NCBI GenBank assembly: GCA_021463865.1
Contig: JAJTXY010000003.1
Coordinates: 124,001 to 188,000 of the forward strand
DNA length: 64,000 nucleotides
Origin: Anaerolineae bacterium
GTDB taxonomy: Bacteria; Chloroflexota; Anaerolineae; Aggregatilineales; J027
Direction: 5' to 3'
The translations under genes were made by a program, and so were the position numbers. Positions 4,159-12,652 of this stretch are shown here, piece by piece. Every line of letters begins with the position of its first letter. Positions within the stretch are counted from its first letter, which is position 1. Under the pieces are notes generated by a model. The model did not search any database, had not been told where the DNA came from, and was given only the letters and a program-made list of their open reading frames with translations.

Positions 4159-6201
4159 TTAATTTGGATTACGCATTACCAACATCAGCGTAATGTCATC
4201 TGACTGCGGTGCATCCCCGACAAATTCATGAATATCAGTGACCACCGTATCGCGCATATGGTTACAACTCAGTGCAGGATTAGCCCTAATGGTCTTGAGC
4301 AAGCGAGCTTCGGAATACAAATTACCCGCGATGTCCTGCGCCTCGGTCACACCATCGGTATACATAATTAACACATCGGCAGGGGCAAGCTGATGAGACT
4401 GTTGTTTCCATTTACCCGTATCAAACATGCCCATCGGGATACCCGTCTTGGCTAATTTTTGTACCCCCTCACCATCCTTGATATTCAAAACAAAGGCCGG
4501 GTTATGCCCTGCACTGGCATAGGTCAACATCCCATCGGCAGGGTTCAGCACCCCATAAAAGACCGTCACAAAAAGATTGGTGCGCGTATCCTGCAAAATA
4601 CGTTGATTGGCAGCCCGTAACACCGTCGCAGGCTCGTCAGGATATTCAAAGGCATAGGTACGAATCAAAGTGCGGCTGAGGGCCATAAACAGCGCCGCGC
4701 CTGTCCCCTTATCCGCCACATCCGCCACCACAAAACCAATTTTACCGTCGGGGAAGGGAATCAAATCATAAAAATCACCGCAAGTCTCGCGGGCGGAGTC
4801 AATGGTCGCCGCCAACTGCCAACCTGTTACTTGTGGCAGTTCACTGGGTAAGAAACTGGCCTGTACCTTGCCTGCAAACGCCAATTCTTGCATCGTTTTC
4901 TGATGAGCTAGGGTCTCCTGATAGGTCTTGGCACTATGTAAAGCCGAAGCGATTTGTGCAGCGAGGGACTGCAACGGTAACTTAAAGCGATCCATCTTGC
5001 CGATGCGGAGACCCCCAAAATAAATGCCGCCAATTGTCTCACGGGTTTCCGCATCCAATATGGGTACAGTCAGCATCGAAAAGATCGCGGGTTTATTTGC
5101 CCAAGGCATGATTTCTTTCGCTTTGATGGCAACGGGTTCTTTTTGGGTACTTAACCACTGCCAAAAATCATCATCGGGCTGATACTGATTAACCACGTGA
5201 TCCAGCAAGGTGCGATCTGGATACAATCGAATAAAGATTGCTGAACTGAGAAACATCGGCGGGACATGCGTTTTTAAAATCTCCGGCAGCGCCGAAGCAT
5301 CCGGTGGCCCGTTCAAGATTGCGCGGCTCATCTGCTCCAAAAGTTCCATTTCACGCGAGCGCTGCTGACTGCTGTCTACTGATTTACTTAGGCGATAGAG
5401 CAGCACACAAATGAGCAATAAGCCCGTCGCAAACATCAAAAAGGCTAAGAAACCGTCCCCTGAATAAACGCCAGCCCCCAATACCCCAAACGGTTCGATG
5501 AGAAAACTAGTAGCCATTGACAGGAGAACCACCAACAAAACATTTCTGAAGCCAGCCCGAAACTCTGGCGAGATATAGATTTGACGCAATATGTACATGG
5601 TGTAGGGAAGGTCAAACAATTGGGCAATCCCAATATGGGCCAGAATCGCTACCAAGCCTAACACAAAGTCATCGGCCTGTAGGCTTGGTAGGGGATATTC
5701 ACCGCCTAGTCCCTCATAAATACCTAAAGCCAGCAACCCTGCTATCGTGCATGAGACAACTTCCCCAAGAAATCGGCGGACGACATTCCAAAATACAAAA
5801 CTCACACGGGGTGCACGCCACCATTCATAGAAGTAGTCCCCAACCGCCACTAGAAACTGAAGCCAGAAAACGGTTGGGCCAAACAGCAACACCCCTGACC
5901 ACGTAATAATCGGCGCAAGTGACCCCTGTGTAGAGACCTGTTCTGTTCCCATAGACAAAGCGAGGAAAAAGTCGAGCCGCTCGGCTAAGGCGATAAAAAC
6001 CAGCAAGGTCAATAACATAGGCCATTCGCGTTGTATCACCTCTTGATCAGTTTCTAGTACCAGCCAAACAATCCCTATCAAAACCATTGGCGTGTACAAA
6101 AGAAACGCTAAGGTATCGGCAATCAACCCAATATTGCGAGCACCAAGACTGTCAAAAGCGGGGTGAAGCCGTTTGGAAATTTTCGTAAGCAGTGCGTTCA
6201 T
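4159..6201 (-). CDS. Membrane SpoIIE/RsbU-type serine phosphatase with GAF domain
   Basis: The product (680 residues) has an N-terminal block of about seven membrane helices (roughly 20-275), a GAF-like region (about 290-425), and a C-terminal PP2C domain of the SpoIIE type (about 445-680). Metal-binding acids are visible in CGDFYD, VVADVADKGTG and MYTDGVTEAQD. Such proteins dephosphorylate anti-anti-sigma partners and control a partner-switching stress response. No STAS or RsbW-like gene is in this window, so its target is elsewhere. The membrane part probably senses a signal. The 3' end lies 94 bases from the M1 peptidase start on the same strand. Confidence 0.87.
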   Translation of the reverse strand: MNALLTKISKRLHPAFDSLGARNIGLIADTLAFLLYTPMVLIGIVWLVLETDQEVIQREWPMLLTLLVFIALAERLDFFLALSMGTEQVSTQGSLAPIITWSGVLLFGPTVFWLQFLVAVGDYFYEWWRAPRVSFVFWNVVRRFLGEVVSCTIAGLLALGIYEGLGGEYPLPSLQADDFVLGLVAILAHIGIAQLFDLPYTMYILRQIYISPEFRAGFRNVLLVVLLSMATSFLIEPFGVLGAGVYSGDGFLAFLMFATGLLLICVLLYRLSKSVDSSQQRSREMELLEQMSRAILNGPPDASALPEILKTHVPPMFLSSAIFIRLYPDRTLLDHVVNQYQPDDDFWQWLSTQKEPVAIKAKEIMPWANKPAIFSMLTVPILDAETRETIGGIYFGGLRIGKMDRFKLPLQSLAAQIASALHSAKTYQETLAHQKTMQELAFAGKVQASFLPSELPQVTGWQLAATIDSARETCGDFYDLIPFPDGKIGFVVADVADKGTGAALFMALSRTLIRTYAFEYPDEPATVLRAANQRILQDTRTNLFVTVFYGVLNPADGMLTYASAGHNPAFVLNIKDGEGVQKLAKTGIPMGMFDTGKWKQQSHQLAPADVLIMYTDGVTEAQDIAGNLYSEARLLKTIRANPALSCNHMRDTVVTDIHEFVGDAPQSDDITLMLVMRNPN

Positions 6202-6284
6202 AGGCCCGTTTTCTTAAATAATTGACTATAAATCAACTGTTATATCGCCATAGTGCGGTACACGCCATTTTTACCACGAGAAAC

Positions 6285-6312
6285 AAAAAAGCCCCATCTG
6301 GTCAGGGGCTTC
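6285..6312 (-). terminator. Rho-independent terminator of the glycosyltransferase gene
   Basis: Read on the minus strand, AGCCCC and GGGGCT form a six-base-pair stem around a nine-base loop, followed by TTTTTTGTTT. It lies about 20 bases past the stop of the 6333-7898 gene and separates it from the phosphatase gene. Confidence 0.85.
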
Positions 6313-6332
6313 ATCATCTCAAGTGAGGGAGT

Positions 6333-7898
6333 TTAGTTCTTTTTCGTGACCTTAAATTCCAGCGGCATCCCCAACATCAATTGCGTTTGGGCCTGTACCA
6401 CCGGGAAAGCCACACAGATCAAGGTGATGGTCGGCAGCATCGGAATGCTCAACAGGGTCATCAAGCGTTCTTTGCGTGTACTGACATTCCCCGCCGGACG
6501 CGGTGGTCGCAACCGAGCATCTACAAAAAACACAAACAGCGTCATGATAATCACAATCAAAAACCCGACCTGCAACAAGACAAACGGCAGGGCATTCGAG
6601 TTCTCCCGTACCACTTCGGGGTGCAATAGTGCTGGAAGCTGTGTTCCCAACGTGATAATCACCCAGCCTGCTCCGGCCAGTAAATTGTCATGGGCTACGC
6701 GAAAAACCAGCTTAAACCCATTCATGAAACCTGTTGAGGGGTGTTCATTCATTTGCCCGATGGCATAGCCGATTTCTTTGGCCCCCCACGCATGACGCAG
6801 CGTTTGGCGATAGCGGCGCATCACGGAATCCCAAACATTTTTCCCCGTTGTGGCACACGCCAAAAATGGGAAAAACATAGGACGCAGCACCAAATCACCT
6901 TCGCGTTTGAAAAACGACTTGATATACATATGCCATTCGTCGGCAATCACATCCGAGTCCCAATAGCCCATGTTGTCCAACAATTTCAGGCTCATGGAGT
7001 AGGATGACATCGGCAGAGCACGCCACCATGGGGCCGCGATATAGGCCAATTCCCATGCCGAGGAATAGGCGTGCAGCAAGCGCATAAAGGGATTAATGTC
7101 CCATACATTACCATGATAGCGGATCGGGGCTTGCCAAAACGCGGAATAGCGGCGGTCATCGAGGGCAAACATCACCCCCAACGCCTCAAAGTGGCGCGGA
7201 TGCCAAAGCGTATCGGCGTCCATCGTTGTCACGACAATGTGATGAATGTTCATGCCCATTTCATCCACCAACTGCCGACGTGCCCAGCGTGCCGCCCATG
7301 CTTGATTGGCCGATTTGCACTGAATCTCGTTATGCAATCCTTTGGGATGCACCGGGAAGAAAAAGTTGGCAAATAGACGATCATATTCTGCTTTGAGGAT
7401 TTCACCTTTGGCAATACCATCGGGGTCGCCGGATTCCATCGCCAAAACTATCGTGATGGCATCCAGCGCGTTGGGCTGCATTGCAAGACGATCTAAGGTC
7501 GTCCGCAAGGTGTCGAGGTCTTCTTTGTAATTGGGGATGATGATGACGTGATGCACTTTTTCCAACGGCAAACTGAGGTCGTTGGCGTGTTTGGCATAAT
7601 ATTTGCGCCAATCCCGGGCTTCCCATGTGCGAATGCGCCGCAGGCCCATCAAAACAGCAACCCCAGCAAACAGAAAACGCACGGCAGAATACATGCCCAA
7701 CAGTGCTGCACCCAACATCATCGTCATGGGAGCATAAATCGCACCGAGCACCACAACGCCTAGTGCCAGCCACGCCAATCCACCGGGGATGGCATCAAGG
7801 ATGGATTCAGGGATACGACGCGGCACAGCACCAGCATAAACCCGTGTGGCGCCAAGCTGCACATTATTACGACGATTCCCTCTCGATTGATAGGGCAC
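6333..7898 (-). CDS. Family 2 membrane glycosyltransferase
   Basis: Membrane-embedded glycosyltransferase (521 residues) with the GT-A fold. Two helices (about 40-85) precede a cytoplasmic domain beginning VIIIPNYKED, a DxD metal/sugar-nucleotide site at Asp227-Ala-Asp229, a catalytic-base region ADEWHM (319-324) and RRYRQTLRHAWG, which resembles the QxxRW region of processive synthases. Three C-terminal helices follow. It may make or extend a cell-surface polysaccharide; the sugar cannot be read from sequence. Start GTG at 7898 is supported by GGAGAGG five bases upstream. It is a single-gene unit ended by its own terminator. Confidence 0.82.
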   Translation of the reverse strand: MPYQSRGNRRNNVQLGATRVYAGAVPRRIPESILDAIPGGLAWLALGVVVLGAIYAPMTMMLGAALLGMYSAVRFLFAGVAVLMGLRRIRTWEARDWRKYYAKHANDLSLPLEKVHHVIIIPNYKEDLDTLRTTLDRLAMQPNALDAITIVLAMESGDPDGIAKGEILKAEYDRLFANFFFPVHPKGLHNEIQCKSANQAWAARWARRQLVDEMGMNIHHIVVTTMDADTLWHPRHFEALGVMFALDDRRYSAFWQAPIRYHGNVWDINPFMRLLHAYSSAWELAYIAAPWWRALPMSSYSMSLKLLDNMGYWDSDVIADEWHMYIKSFFKREGDLVLRPMFFPFLACATTGKNVWDSVMRRYRQTLRHAWGAKEIGYAIGQMNEHPSTGFMNGFKLVFRVAHDNLLAGAGWVIITLGTQLPALLHPEVVRENSNALPFVLLQVGFLIVIIMTLFVFFVDARLRPPRPAGNVSTRKERLMTLLSIPMLPTITLICVAFPVVQAQTQLMLGMPLEFKVTKKN

Positions 7899-7994
7899 TC
7901 AAGCCTCTCCGAGATTAAGCGCGAAATGGGATTCTTAAAGATAAACACTTCACGCTGAAGACGAAACTAATAGTTCGATTGTTCCATTCAACTG

Positions 7995-8009
7995 ACAATA
8001 TTTTATTGT
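7995..8009. promoter_or_regulatory. 15-base AT-rich palindrome (6-3-6) in divergent intergenic region
   Basis: ACAATA and TATTGT are perfect inverted repeats separated by three T residues. The site lies between the divergent glycosyltransferase and TIR-domain genes and could be an operator for either. No dedicated regulator gene is adjacent, so the function is speculative. Confidence 0.35.
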
Positions 8010-8028
8010 AACAGATAAATGGGGCAAC

Positions 8029-8081
8029 AGGTTAACCTACCCTCGGCGGTTTTTGACAATCAACCATACTAAAAATATAAT
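8029..8081 (+). promoter_or_regulatory. Perfect consensus sigma70 promoter with upstream palindrome
   Basis: TTGACA (8053-8058) and TATAAT (8076-8081) are separated by exactly 17 bases. The expected transcript start is near 8088, giving a leader of about 44 bases before the TIR-domain gene at 8132. A perfect 10-base palindrome AGGTTAACCT (8029-8038) sits 14 bases upstream of the -35 box and may bind a regulator. Confidence 0.8.
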
Positions 8082-8131
8082 TTCCTTGGTATTTTATATA
8101 TGATTTACAAATCCGTATAGGGAAGTGTTTT

Positions 8132-9280
8132 ATGCACATCTTTATTAGCTATGCGAAAAAGGATTCTCAAAACCTAGCCTTCCGCCTGTATGACGAACTA
8201 AATGCTATCCAAGGAATTACCGCATGGGCTGATAAGTCGCTGATTCCTAGCGAAGAATGGGATCAAGATATCCAAAGCAATATTGATAACTGCGACCTCA
8301 TGATTGTCTTACTTTCCCCAGATGTTAACCGCCCCAAAACAGATCGCCAAGATTCGAGTTTTGTATTAAAAGAAATATCACGTGCGAAACGAAAACTCAA
8401 GAAAATTCTGCCAATTATGGTTGAACCTACCGATATTCCACTGGAAATCGAAAGAATAGAATACATTGATTTTACCTCCAATCAGCAAGTAGGGCTGAAT
8501 CGCTTATTCAAATATCTATATGAACTTTTAAACAGAGGCCCATATGAACCTTTACCCATTTTCTCTTTGCCATCGCCATTTGATTGGTGTGAAATACCCA
8601 GTGGTTTTGTGACTATAAAAGATGAGAACACCAATGGAGGATCAAAAGGAGGTATCTTCGAAATTGATCGGTTTTCGATCTCCAAATATCCCATTACAAA
8701 CGCTCAATTTCAGCTTTTTTTGGGGGACTATTCGAATCCGAATTGGTGGGATTACTCAAATGAATCGCTGTCTTGGTTTAGAGACAATCCTCAACCAGTT
8801 GAAACTTCATTTGAGGGAAGCGATTTGCCACGAACGAATGTCAGTTGGTACGAAGCAGTAGCTTTTTGTAAATGGCTTAGTAACAAGACTGGATACACAA
8901 TAAGCCTTCCCTCAGAACAACAATGGCAGCGGGCCGCCCAAGGGGACTCAAGTTGGGCATATCCTTGGGGTGATAGATTTAGCACCAAATTCTGCAATTG
9001 TAATTCTGAAAAAACCACATCTGTCATCAAATATCCCGAAGGGGCAAGTCCTTATAAGGTGATGGATTTGAGTGGTAATGTTTGGGAATGGTGTGCTTCT
9101 GAATGGGAAACGGGCAACCTTGGTTTGGCCCATTATCAAAGCAAAAGCCACCGTGTCTTGCGCGGCGGCTCTTGGAAAAACAATGATTTGACTTATTTTA
9201 GATGCGATTTCCGCCGCAAACATCTGCCATCGGGTAGAGGCAACACCGCGGGATTCAGGATTGTAAGGCGATTTGGGTAA
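8132..9280 (+). CDS. TIR domain fused to FGE/C-type-lectin-fold domain
   Basis: The N-terminal TIR domain (about 1-135) begins MHIFISYAKKDS and has IDNCDLMIVLLSPD and FVLKEI, where Glu81 corresponds to the catalytic Glu of NAD-cleaving TIR enzymes. The C-terminal domain (about 148-382) is of the formylglycine-generating-enzyme type, with PITNAQF, PRTNVSWYEAVAFCKWL, LPSEQQWQRAAQGD, DLSGNVWEW and RVLRGGSW. The two copper-binding Cys of true FGE fall at Asn350 and Tyr355, so this domain probably binds ligand rather than oxidising sulfatases. ATG start with GGAAG seven bases upstream. Composition is A+T-richer than the neighbours. A role in NAD-depleting immunity or signalling is an inference. 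Confidence 0.85.
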   Translation: MHIFISYAKKDSQNLAFRLYDELNAIQGITAWADKSLIPSEEWDQDIQSNIDNCDLMIVLLSPDVNRPKTDRQDSSFVLKEISRAKRKLKKILPIMVEPTDIPLEIERIEYIDFTSNQQVGLNRLFKYLYELLNRGPYEPLPIFSLPSPFDWCEIPSGFVTIKDENTNGGSKGGIFEIDRFSISKYPITNAQFQLFLGDYSNPNWWDYSNESLSWFRDNPQPVETSFEGSDLPRTNVSWYEAVAFCKWLSNKTGYTISLPSEQQWQRAAQGDSSWAYPWGDRFSTKFCNCNSEKTTSVIKYPEGASPYKVMDLSGNVWEWCASEWETGNLGLAHYQSKSHRVLRGGSWKNNDLTYFRCDFRRKHLPSGRGNTAGFRIVRRFG

Positions 9281-9283
9281 AGT

Positions 9284-10120
9284 CTATAGATTTTCTAGGT
9301 CATTTCGAGTGAGTTTTTCGTCGTAATACTTTTCGGCGGCAAGCCTCATGTCATTCAGTGTTTTCATATTTAGACCCGCATTGATTAAGGCACCACCAAC
9401 GGGAATAAACGAGAGGATAGCTTTACCGCCAACTTTCGCCGCAAATCGCGTCGCAACTTTGGTTGCAACCTTTTTTCGTACCGCACGCCCAACTGTCTTT
9501 TGAGCAACTTTCTTGGTGGCATATTTTTTGGCCGCTCGTGCCGTAACGGAACTAGCTGCCGACATTCCAATTGTCTCTAATAACTTAGCTGATTTGGCAT
9601 CGCTAGTAACATCGTTTGCGAATAATTGAAGGGCAGTCAAGGTATGGATCAGAAGCTCATCAGAATTTAGTGGCGTGTTTTCTACTGTATCGTCAACCTT
9701 TTCTTGAATATCCTCGTTTGAGAGATAATAATGCAACGCATCTACAGAGATGGCTTTGAAAGCTACAACATTGCGGTCATATTTCGAGTCATTAGCCCAA
9801 ATTGCAAGCACATTGGTAATGTCTGAATATTCTTCCGTCTCGATTGGAAAAGCATCCTTTAATGTCCCAATACCCCAGCTTACCCTTGCCATTTTATGCA
9901 ATAAAAATCCAATGCCTGCGATCATAGTCAGACCACCCAAGCCGGGAATAGCCATTTCTGCAGCACCTGCTATTGCGCTAGCACCAATTTCCTGTTGATT
10001 CCACTTTTCAAGATAGCCACAGCGTTTTGCGGCCTCGATTGCCTGTGGGCAAGCACTGCTCAGGCGATAATCTTCTAATTTAGTGTCAATAAATTCAGTT
10101 ACTTGCTCTTTTAGTCCCAT
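9284..10120 (-). CDS. EcsC-like protein of unknown function
   Basis: This protein of 278 residues resembles the EcsC family at its C-terminus: FIPVGGALINAGLNMKTLNDMRLAAEKYY matches the usual Pro-x-x-Gly-Ala...Asn...Ala-x-x-Tyr pattern. It has a hydrophobic glycine-rich hairpin near residues 45-75 (IPGLGGLTMIAGIGFLLHK) and a strongly basic Ala/Lys/Arg stretch around 200-235, so membrane association is likely. I chose ATG at 10120; a TTG four codons upstream would sit directly on the AAGGA ribosome site. It converges with the TIR gene, the stops being three bases apart, and shares its A+T-rich composition. Confidence 0.6.
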   Translation of the reverse strand: MGLKEQVTEFIDTKLEDYRLSSACPQAIEAAKRCGYLEKWNQQEIGASAIAGAAEMAIPGLGGLTMIAGIGFLLHKMARVSWGIGTLKDAFPIETEEYSDITNVLAIWANDSKYDRNVVAFKAISVDALHYYLSNEDIQEKVDDTVENTPLNSDELLIHTLTALQLFANDVTSDAKSAKLLETIGMSAASSVTARAAKKYATKKVAQKTVGRAVRKKVATKVATRFAAKVGGKAILSFIPVGGALINAGLNMKTLNDMRLAAEKYYDEKLTRNDLENL

Positions 10121-10154
10121 GTTTGAGTACAATCCTTATAGTAAGTTAACTAGA

Positions 10155-10181
10155 ATTATATACAAGTATACAATAAATCAA
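10155..10181 (-). promoter_or_regulatory. Probable promoter of the EcsC-like gene
   Basis: On the minus strand TTGATT (10181-10176) and TATAAT (10160-10155) are separated by 15 bases, slightly short of optimal. The -10 box is about 35 bases upstream of the ATG. This suggests the EcsC-like gene is transcribed independently of the upstream cell-wall operon. Confidence 0.5.
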
Positions 10182-10228
10182 CACTGGTATCAAAACTGCC
10201 TTCTTTAAGAATATTTTAAAATACCTCT

Positions 10229-10702
10229 TCATTTCAAATTCTTCGCCATGACGATATTGGTCGTTTCATAGCCGATTTTCTGATACAGGGCATAGGCCGA
10301 TTGGTTGTGTCCAAAAACGTGCAGTCCGATGCTCTCCAAACCCACTTTTTTGACTTCATCTTCCAGCGCCAGCATCGCTTGGGTCGCATACCCCTGCCGC
10401 CGAAATTCCTCATAAACCAGTACGTCATATATCCACGCCGACTTTTTCCCACCCTCGCCACGCGCGGCAAACCAGATCGCCCCGACATTTTGCCCTTTGT
10501 CTTCATCAAAAATCGAAAATAGGTATTGGTCGGGTGAATGAACGCCATTGGGAAGCAGGCGGGCAAACTCGGCTTTGGAAAGTTCCATCGCTTGGTCAGC
10601 AGGCCAATTTCCCGCTTTCACTTTTTCATTGGCATAATCCACCATCAAAAACTCAAGATAGGGCACAAGTTCTTCTTCGGTCATGGGATTCAAGCGCGTC
10701 AT
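10229..10702 (-). CDS. GNAT-family N-acetyltransferase
   Basis: Acetyl-CoA-dependent acyltransferase of the GNAT fold, 157 residues. The core shows AWIYDVLVYEEFRRQGYATQAM, where RRQGYA is the acetyl-CoA pyrophosphate loop (R/QxxGxG/A), followed by IGLHVFGHNQSAYALYQKIGYE, the usual closing motif. The frame is open further upstream, but that part overlaps the preceding gene, so I start at the ATG at 10702, ten bases after the upstream stop. It is the last gene of the cell-wall operon. The substrate is unknown; modification of a precursor or of a toxic amine are both possible. Confidence 0.85.
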   Translation of the reverse strand: MTRLNPMTEEELVPYLEFLMVDYANEKVKAGNWPADQAMELSKAEFARLLPNGVHSPDQYLFSIFDEDKGQNVGAIWFAARGEGGKKSAWIYDVLVYEEFRRQGYATQAMLALEDEVKKVGLESIGLHVFGHNQSAYALYQKIGYETTNIVMAKNLK

Positions 10703-10712
10703 AAAAATTGAT

Positions 10713-11462
10713 TCACTCCTCAGTGATGAATACAGCAAAGCGATAGGCATAGGCTTGATGGAATTTTCGGGCAGGTAACCACGCATGGGCCTGTAATTCA
10801 GGATAGCGACCGGAGGGGTTGTGAAGTAGATAAGCAGTCGGGCGTCCCCCCCGCCATAGAAACCCATGCAGCAGCACCGAATGGCCTCCATAGCGGCGCG
10901 ATTGTGGTTTTTGCTCCCCAAGCTCCGGTGTCACCGTCGCGGCGACCAGATGCCCTTGCCACAGATGATAACAAATTCCGAGGGGGGACGCATAGCTGTA
11001 GCCATTAAGTTGTAGGCCATATTGGGCGGCTAATTTAACCTGTGCGGCGAAGTACCAGCCTTCATCAATCCAGCGGCCCTGTGCATCCCGCACCACATAG
11101 CCCCTTTCAGCAAGGCCCTCTTGCGTTAACTGCCATAACGTTGGCGTGGCGTTATTGGGTTGGTGCGCCTCAATCGCCATTTTAATGACCGCCAGCGCAC
11201 ACACCCGATGTGACCAAAAAGCATAATCTTGGGGGTCAGGTGAACCGAAAACTGCCCAATTGGGGTCGTGTGTGCCATCATAACCGTGATGGATGTAATC
11301 ATTGATGCGTTCAGGGCTGGCAAATTGGGGGATATAGGGAACATCAAACGGCACACGATATTCCCCATCGGGCAAATCAGCTAATTTTGAACGCCACTCC
11401 CTCCCATTCCGCCATGCCATCAGCGGGTCTATGAGGCGGTGGAGTTCATTTTTGAGCCGCAT
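10713..11462 (-). CDS. C39-like papain-fold cysteine peptidase domain protein
   Basis: A 249-residue protein with the arrangement of Peptidase_C39_2-type domains: VPYIPQFASP near residue 41, Cys88 in WSHRVCALAVIKM, His194 in YGGHSVLLHGF and Asn215 in LLHNPSGR, giving a plausible Cys-His-Asn triad. There is no signal peptide or membrane helix, so it is predicted cytoplasmic, which is unusual for this group. Its ATG overlaps the ddl stop by one base (TAATG), so it is translationally coupled to D-Ala-D-Ala ligase. That placement suggests a role on a cell-wall precursor or related peptide. Confidence 0.7.
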   Translation of the reverse strand: MRLKNELHRLIDPLMAWRNGREWRSKLADLPDGEYRVPFDVPYIPQFASPERINDYIHHGYDGTHDPNWAVFGSPDPQDYAFWSHRVCALAVIKMAIEAHQPNNATPTLWQLTQEGLAERGYVVRDAQGRWIDEGWYFAAQVKLAAQYGLQLNGYSYASPLGICYHLWQGHLVAATVTPELGEQKPQSRRYGGHSVLLHGFLWRGGRPTAYLLHNPSGRYPELQAHAWLPARKFHQAYAYRFAVFITEE

Positions 11463-12652
11463 TATTTCTTGACACCTGCCACCCCACGAGTCGCCGCATG
11501 TTCCAATAATTTGCTACGATAGTCGAAGGTGGTTTGGCGTTTTTCGGCATGGCGCTGCAAACCAAGTTGAATCAATTCGTCCACGACCTGCGCGGCGGTC
11601 TTGCCCGATTTTTCCCATAAATAAAAGGAGAGCGACCCCGGCAGGGTATTGATTTCATTCAGCCACACCTCGCCCAAATCTGGTTTGACCAGAAAATCAA
11701 TCCGTGCGATGCCCTGCCCTTGAATGGCAAGGAAAGCACGCTTGGCGATGTCTTGAATCTTGGCGGTCAATTCAGGGCTAATCGGGGCGGGGATAATACG
11801 ATCCGCGCCTTTCATGCCTGCTGATTTACCCCCCTTGCCACGCATGTATTTTTCGTCATAGGTCAAAAAGGCTTCACCAGAGAGGGGCTGCTCCAAAACT
11901 GACGCTTCGATTTCAATATTGCCCATCACCGAGCAGTTGATTTCGACCCCGCCGACGAGCGCACGTTCGACCAATAAATCTTGGGCAAGGCTGGCAGCAA
12001 CATCAATATGAAGTCGCGCTTGGTCTTCATTTTCAATTTTGGCAATCCCGATGCTCGAACCGAGGGTAGCGGGCTTCACAAATGCTGGATAACCCTGCTC
12101 GGTGATGCGCTCCAAAATCGGGGTGGGGTTCGCCAGCCAATCACGCCGCGTAAAGGCAACCGCCTCCAACACGGGGATGTCATATTGTTTCAGCAGAGCC
12201 TTCGCCACGATTTTGTGGTTGGCAATCGCCGAAGCCAAAACACCTGTGCCGATGTAAGGGATGTTCGCCATTTCCAACAGCCCTTGCAACGTGCCATCTT
12301 CCCCATGTGTGCCGTGTACCGAACAAAAAGCGACATCAAGGCGCTGGAAGGTATTTTTTTGCAGACGGCCTGCCAATGGGGGGTGAATGATGCCCGGATA
12401 GCGGGTATTGGAGGAAAACATCACTTCGTAAACCGTTGCGACCTGCGAAATATCGTCCAATTGATAATTTTGGATGTCGCGCAGACCCGGCCCACTCAGC
12501 CAGCGACCATCACGGGGGATATACAGCGGCACAATCTCATATTTATTAGGATTCATGGCCTGCATGATCTGTTGGGCCGTCACAATCGAAACATCGTGTT
12601 CCACCGAACGACTACCAAAAATCACGCCCACCGTCAATTTGTTATTTGCCAT
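11462..12652 (-). CDS. ddl: D-alanine--D-alanine ligase
   Basis: ATP-grasp enzyme that joins two D-Ala residues for the peptidoglycan stem peptide, in the cytoplasm. The 396-residue sequence has GVIFGSRSVEHDVSIVTAQQI at the N-terminus, the ligase signature HGTHGEDGTLQGLLEMANIPY, GSSIGIAKIEN, the metal-binding segment ARIDFLV and LNEINTLPGS. Length is slightly above the common 350-370 because of a C-terminal tail. It lies 46 bases downstream of murF and is coupled to the C39-like gene. All features of an active enzyme are present. Confidence 0.95.
   Translation of the reverse strand: MANNKLTVGVIFGSRSVEHDVSIVTAQQIMQAMNPNKYEIVPLYIPRDGRWLSGPGLRDIQNYQLDDISQVATVYEVMFSSNTRYPGIIHPPLAGRLQKNTFQRLDVAFCSVHGTHGEDGTLQGLLEMANIPYIGTGVLASAIANHKIVAKALLKQYDIPVLEAVAFTRRDWLANPTPILERITEQGYPAFVKPATLGSSIGIAKIENEDQARLHIDVAASLAQDLLVERALVGGVEINCSVMGNIEIEASVLEQPLSGEAFLTYDEKYMRGKGGKSAGMKGADRIIPAPISPELTAKIQDIAKRAFLAIQGQGIARIDFLVKPDLGEVWLNEINTLPGSLSFYLWEKSGKTAAQVVDELIQLGLQRHAEKRQTTFDYRSKLLEHAATRGVAGVKK

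What the first reader, a model, noticed from the sequence alone, without database searches (positions are those of the whole stretch)
8132..9280. TIR domain fused to an FGE-like domain without FGE chemistry
The TIR half keeps the Glu81 expected of NAD-cleaving TIR enzymes, while the FGE-like half lacks the two copper-binding Cys (Asn350 and Tyr355 instead). This looks like a TIR effector switched by a ligand-binding lectin-like fold, a composition fitting immunity or signalling systems and not a sulfatase-maturation enzyme.
Basis: partly seen in the sequence, partly recalled or inferred. Interest (0 to 1): 0.7.

Follow-up and report, generated by a model that had tools for sequence, protein, structure and literature searches.

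The report
TIR enzyme fused to lectin-like sensor
This gene joins an NAD-cleaving-type immune domain to a lectin-like binding domain from a family that the same genome rewrites with a mutating retroelement, so it is probably an immune sensor whose binding target has become fixed.

Summary
An intact 382-aa ORF (8132-9280 +) carries TIR_2 (residues 3-124) and an FGE-sulfatase domain (177-379). Glu81 aligns with the Glu of solved TIR NADases; Asn350/Tyr355 replace the FGE copper cysteines. No sulfatase was found in the genome, but ten FGE-domain genes were, five fused to TIR. Two of those, elsewhere in the genome, look like textbook diversity-generating retroelement (DGR) targets: Avd, template repeat, and differences almost only at template adenines. 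Orthologues of a third keep a 94% identical TIR beside a 32% identical variable region. The window's FGE half, variable region excluded, falls inside that hypervariable clade (support 0.999). The window gene is not a live target of either template: 39 of 80 and 41 of 82 non-adenine positions differ. It sits with an EcsC-like gene in a 2.17-kb A+T-rich insert absent from 4 of 4 sister species. Best reading: a minimal, NTPase-less TIR-lectin sensor/effector, uncoupled from its DGR and carried in a small acquired cassette. TIR/FGS conflict proteins and DGR-free paralogues are published, so it is a new member of a known kind. NADase activity, trigger and the EcsC link are untested.

The parts
8068..10235 (.). 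Inserted two-gene cassette, about 2.17 kb
   Evidence: Flanks of 4 of 4 other genus genomes align up to 8044-8067 and again from 10236-10239; G+C of its two genes 42-43% against 50% for the window.
8132..9280 (+). TIR-FGE gene, 382 aa
   Evidence: Intact ORF; Pfam domains.
8138..8503 (+). TIR domain, residues 3-124
   Evidence: TIR_2 1.5e-19; fold match to TIR structures.
8372..8374 (+). Codon of Glu81, putative catalytic Glu
   Evidence: Invariant in 13 of 13; Glu column in 5 displayed PDB alignments.
8660..9268 (+). FGE-sulfatase / C-type-lectin-fold domain, residues 177-379
   Evidence: PF03781 4.2e-40; fold matches.
9176..9265 (+). Segment matching the DGR variable region of sister genes, residues 349-378; holds N350 and Y355
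   Evidence: Aligned to the variable regions; not a live match to either template repeat.
9284..10132 (-). EcsC-like gene, 282 aa, convergent with the TIR-FGE gene; functional link unproven
   Evidence: PF12787 2.3e-05, below the curated cut-off; weak PADLOC PDC-S30/S29; within the insert.

Best explanation
A minimal sensor/effector of the TIR + FGS (FGE / C-type-lectin) conflict-protein kind. The C-terminal lectin-fold domain is the binding surface for an invader or stress ligand. Binding or clustering brings the N-terminal TIR domains together, and these cleave NAD+ through Glu81, either depleting NAD or making an ADP-ribose-type signal. The binding domain belongs to a lineage whose members are diversified by DGRs; in this gene the link to a template repeat is lost, so its specificity is now fixed, and it was acquired in a small cassette. 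SHOWN: domains, Glu81 column, missing FGE copper ligands, lectin-fold similarity, DGRs on sister genes, hypervariable orthologues of the nearest in-genome relative, no live pairing with the two templates found, insertion. INFERRED: NAD cleavage, ligand recognition, switching, antiviral role.
For: Domains; Glu81 conserved; TIR and lectin folds; FGE Cys pair absent here and in 9 of 9 FGE genes of the genome whose ends were seen; no sulfatase match. Live TR/VR pairs on two other TIR-FGE genes: C7 20 of 31 A and 0 of 83 non-A positions differ, C35 25 of 34 A and 1 of 89 non-A, with Avd over the NCBIfam cut-off at both and one RVT_1 in the genome. C34-type orthologues in 4 species: TIR 94.3%, FGE body 72.5%, variable region 32.2% mean identity. 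Window FGE half in the C34/C5 clade at 0.999. Empty site in 4 of 4 sister species. Published proposal that FGS domains bind invader molecules and work with TIR and other effectors (PMC8195603, section 7 read).
Against: No activity, ligand or phage phenotype is known. TIR-like folds include nucleoside hydrolases with equal Z. No NTPase and no recognised defence neighbour, unlike the published FGS systems. C34-type variability occurs also in G001 and G004, where no RVT_1 was found, so its cause there is open. The domains were folded apart from shallow alignments.
Confidence: 0.6

Rival explanations
1. Two-component, Thoeris-like module: TIR-FGE senses a ligand and makes an ADP-ribose-type messenger that triggers the neighbouring EcsC-like protein as effector.
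For: The two genes are alone together in one insert; the EcsC-like gene has no match in the 4 sister species and weakly matches PADLOC candidates PDC-S30 and PDC-S29.
Against: Convergent, not an operon. Among the loci held, many with only 1.5 kb of flank, the EcsC-like protein is found beside no other TIR-FGE gene; G119 and G054 have none within 19 kb. Its relative in G007 has no TIR gene in the 3.2 kb seen.
Confidence: 0.13
2. The TIR is not an enzyme but an assembly domain, and the protein is a signalling adaptor unrelated to immunity.
For: Some TIR domains are scaffolds (established knowledge, recalled); no defence neighbours recognised.
Against: Glu81 invariant in 13 of 13 and aligned with NADase TIRs.
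Confidence: 0.15
3. Still a DGR target in trans, of a template repeat not seen in the assembly.
For: The genome has an RT and two Avd genes; remote targets are published (PMC7517822, passages); assembly is 97.21% complete in 59 contigs.
Against: 39 of 80 and 41 of 82 non-A positions differ from the two templates. The PF03781 search itself picks up both templates as short fragments and shows no third. An AAC-rich template pattern has two exact matches, both known templates; the 15 others have 1-2 mismatches, against 53 control matches. The same segment is 50% identical to G054's, no more variable than its TIR (46%) or FGE body (44%), though 33% to G119's against 47% and 51%.
Confidence: 0.06
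4. Decaying relic without function.
For: Accessory, absent from sister species.
Against: Intact ORF with conserved E81, D34, Y7 and FGE core residues.
Confidence: 0.04
5. An FGE- or EgtB-type oxidase.
For: Sequence and fold similarity to FGE, EgtB, PvdO and ToxD.
Against: Both FGE Cys absent; no sulfatase match; NCBIfam EgtB 57.4 vs 360 bits, SenA 56.7 vs 420, PvdO 40.8 vs 500.
Confidence: 0.02

Closest known systems
FGS (PF03781) conflict proteins with N-terminal effectors (PMC8195603 section 7; PMC7159879 passages)
   Same: FGS/lectin-fold domain joined to effectors including TIR; DGR present elsewhere in the genome.
   Different: The published type read here has a STAND or other NTPase, or vWA/MoxR partners; this protein has TIR directly on FGS and no NTPase.
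DGR variable proteins with C-type-lectin fold and their DGR-free paralogues (PMC7517822 and PMC10907252, passages; TvpA 2Y3C)
   Same: Same fold, same C-terminal variable segment, same genome as live TIR-FGE targets; TIR-like N-termini and dispersed paralogues are reported in cyanobacteria.
   Different: No template pairing here; carried in a two-gene insert; probably Chloroflexota (inference).
TIR NADases of SPARTA, Cat1, AbTIR, SARM1
   Same: TIR fold and Glu column.
   Different: The attached sensor is an FGE-like lectin fold, not APAZ, or the sensor domains of Cat1 and SARM1 (those partners are recalled).
Thoeris (ThsB TIR + ThsA)
   Same: Weak ThsB-type TIR match, best 3.7e-6; two-gene unit.
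   Different: Neighbour is EcsC-like; no SIR2 or Macro domain among the five neighbours scanned.

Membership tests
TIR NADase | TIR fold | tested here: met
   TIR_2 1.5e-19; SPARTA Z 15.4, SARM1 Z 12.8
TIR NADase | Catalytic Glu in place | tested here: met
   By alignment only: 5 of 5 displayed PDB alignments, 13 of 13 relatives
TIR NADase | NAD+ hydrolysis | not testable with these tools
   Needs an assay
Formylglycine-generating enzyme | Two copper-binding Cys | tested here: not met
   N350 and Y355 instead
Formylglycine-generating enzyme | Sulfatase substrate in the genome | tested here: not met
   0 PF00884 matches at E 0.001; rings in 10 of 14 controls
DGR variable protein | C-terminal C-type-lectin fold | tested here: met
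   TvpA Z 20.1, Mtd Z 12.8
DGR variable protein | Template repeat matching the gene except at adenines | tested here: not met
DGR variable protein | RT and Avd available | tested here: met
   One RVT_1 and two Avd genes elsewhere in the genome, none beside this gene
STAND NTPase-FGS conflict system | FGS domain with N-terminal effector | tested here: met
STAND NTPase-FGS conflict system | NTPase domain in the protein | tested here: not met
   Pfam shows TIR and FGE families and a sub-threshold DUF4062 only
Thoeris | Adjacent ThsA effector | tested here: not met
   No SIR2 or Macro domain in the five neighbours scanned

The most novel reading that the evidence does not exclude
The 2.17-kb insert is a self-contained two-gene immune module of a new type: an NTPase-free TIR enzyme gated directly by a retroelement-bred lectin-fold receptor, frozen after selection, that signals to an EcsC-like effector. 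Such cassettes would spread ready-made specificities bred by DGRs in other genomes, an inheritance of selected receptors between lineages.
Probability: 0.12. Interest if true: 0.75.

Novelty: new member of a known kind. Interest (0 to 1): 0.45.

Why it matters
Published proposals treat FGS / C-type-lectin domains as DGR-bred immune receptors, and one paper (PMC10907252, passage) says those on STAND proteins have not been characterised by experiment. This family offers a small 382-aa test case without an NTPase, with live, hypervariable and apparently fixed relatives in one genus, so ligand gating of a TIR enzyme could be tested directly. It also suggests that such receptors can move between genomes in small cassettes once they leave the DGR.

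Tried and rejected
Rejected: FGE/sulfatase maturation (no Cys pair, no sulfatase match). Live target of the two templates found (non-A mismatches). Phage-borne origin: phage matches lie in the FGE half only, 11 records, listed identities 24-34%. Plasmids: 252 records, all under 60% identity, 5 with at least 80% of the query. EcsC-like protein on plasmids: no match; in viral contigs: none. Window protein in viral contigs by its own peptides: none; TIR-only scan: none. Rfam on 6000-12000: nothing. tRNAs in the window: none. I do not treat G119 and G054 as simple orthologues: TIRs 71% identical, FGE bodies 41%, and their FGE halves fall in other clades. The DGR in G003 contig C69 has another target and does not explain the C34-type variability.

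VIA-align rows are a second look at Foldseek's matches. The tree has 33 sequences and 200 columns; a span filter dropped the FGE halves of C7, C15, C27 and C45, and L060 was left out. FGE C-terminal ends were seen for 9 of 10 FGE genes: eight, C45; the one at the end of contig C36 was not. The template scan is ungapped and missed the C35 pair, whose alignment has a 3-base gap, so a gapped template for the window gene would have been missed too.

Full report
OBSERVATION. The ORF at 8132-9280 (+) is intact, 382 aa. Pfam gives TIR_2 at 3-124 (1.5e-19) and FGE-sulfatase at 177-379 (4.2e-40), far beyond chance. E81, N350 and Y355 are numbered rightly. In 13 aligned TIR-FGE proteins E81, D34, Y7 and D11 are invariant. 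A profile of 7 TIR domains finds 67 distinct PDB sequences, led by Cat1, with AbTIR, TIR-APAZ proteins and SARM1 among them; the E81 column holds Glu in the 5 alignments displayed. The FGE motif GGSYMCHRSYC, recalled and matched to PDB chains of FGE, puts N350 and Y355 where the Cys pair should be.

STRUCTURE. The domains were predicted apart. TIR: pLDDT 78.2, pTM 0.74, 3 sequences; SPARTA 8ifl_A Z 15.4 (2.9 A, 123 residues), SARM1-NAD 7anw_A Z 12.8 (2.8 A, 123 residues); a 2'-deoxyribosyltransferase (7o62_B, Z 13.9) and DNPH1 (9ia6_A, Z 13.5) score alike, so the fold alone does not prove a NADase. FGE half: pLDDT 72.7, pTM 0.79, 19 sequences; PvdO Z 21.4, TvpA 2y3c Z 20.1 (2.9 A, 202 residues), human FGE Z 19.9, Mtd Z 12.8.

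GENOME. The better of two relatives found in named genomes is from an Anaerolineae MAG, so Chloroflexota is an inference. PF03781 gives 14 matches: I read them as ten genes (C58 and C45 each split in two) plus two short fragments. Five of the ten carry TIR_2: the window gene and those on C34, C5, C35 and C7. No sulfatase match. The Cys pair is absent in 9 of 9 FGE genes whose ends were seen.

DGRs. The two short fragments are template repeats. On C7 a 606-aa TIR-FGE gene is followed by the genome's only RVT_1 gene, an Avd gene (108.6 bits, cut-off 80) and the template; template and variable repeat differ at 20 of 31 adenines and 0 of 83 other bases. On C35 a 909-aa TIR-NACHT-FGE gene has Avd (95.8 bits) and a template but no RT; 25 of 34 adenines and 1 of 89 others differ. 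The window gene against these templates differs at 17 of 31 A and 39 of 80 non-A, and at 18 of 34 A and 41 of 82 non-A: not a live target of either. An ungapped scan of the window and all loci held at that time, with 31 distinct variable segments, found only the C7 pair.

RELATIVES. By FGE half the nearest gene in the genome is C34 (52%). Its orthologues in four species have mean identity 94.3% in the first 150 columns (TIR), 72.5% in the FGE body and 32.2% in the 30-column variable region; the C5 type in five species gives 74.3, 63.1 and 36.3%. That is what targeted diversification would leave, but two of the four C34 genomes (G001, G004) gave no RVT_1 match, and C34 and C5 of this genome also differ from both templates at many non-A positions (C34 28 of 82 and 32 of 84; C5 25 of 82 and 21 of 84), so the cause there is open. 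A tree of 33 FGE domains without the variable region places the window gene with L077 and the C34/C5 types at support 0.999. In the order, 95 of 121 genomes have an FGE-module match at E 1e-40 or better. The closest full-length homologues, G119 (47%) and G054 (46%), share TIRs at 71% but FGE bodies at 41%, so receptor halves seem to be swapped behind a TIR. The window's variable segment is 50% identical to G054's (TIR 46, body 44) and 33% to G119's (TIR 47, body 51): the first speaks against hypervariability, the second does not.

INSERTION. In 4 of 4 other genus genomes the gene at 6333-7898 (94-99% identical) and the gene at 10713-11462 (88-91%) are closely linked without the TIR-FGE and EcsC-like genes; flanking DNA (80-93% identical) ends at 8044-8067 and resumes at 10236-10239. 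The two genes have 42-43% G+C, the window 50%. The EcsC-like protein has no match in the 4 sister species and matches in 2 of 5 other family genomes, one at 27% identity, one marginal. It matches EcsC below the cut-off and PADLOC candidates PDC-S30 and PDC-S29 (2.4e-06, 1.7e-05). Among the loci held, many with short flanks, it occurs beside no other TIR-FGE gene, so partnership rests on co-insertion only.

MECHANISM. The lectin half binds a ligand, TIR halves cluster, Glu81 cleaves NAD+. Binding and clustering are inferred from the fold, from kinship to DGR-bred proteins and from how TIR enzymes work (recalled); cleavage rests on Glu81 and the fold.

LITERATURE. [quoted passage not shown] PMC7159879 and PMC10907252, passages: FGS/CLec with TIR and DGRs in conflict systems. 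PMC7517822, passages: dispersed DGR-target paralogues and TIR-like N-termini in cyanobacteria. Searches: TIR + FGE-sulfatase + DGR, 0 papers; TIR domain + FGE-sulfatase + NACHT, 0; EcsC + defense system + phage, 1, seen in the listing only. The library holds open-licence papers only.

VERDICT. New member of a known kind.

Noticed in passing
L036:4872-8208 (own genome, contig C35): A TIR-NACHT-FGE gene with variable repeat, Avd and template repeat but no RT nearby; the only RVT_1 of the genome is on contig C7, so an RT would have to act in trans.
   Followed up: partly
L244:6680-14173 (genome G003, contig C69): An unrelated DGR: Avd-like gene, template at 7101, RT, and a 1539-aa target; 17 adenine and 0 other mismatches in 80 bases.
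   Followed up: no
L002, L064, L066, L093 (C34-type TIR-FGE genes of four species): TIR 94% identical beside a 32% identical variable region, although two of the four genomes gave no RVT_1 match.
   Followed up: partly
L238:8998-10206 and L239:9692-10876 (G119, G054): TIR halves 71% identical, FGE bodies 41%: signs of receptor-domain swapping.
   Followed up: partly
L039 (own genome, contig C27:17000-27000), 937-aa open frame on the minus strand: Ser/Thr-kinase-like protein (read from sequence, no family scan) with a C-terminal FGE domain.
   Followed up: no
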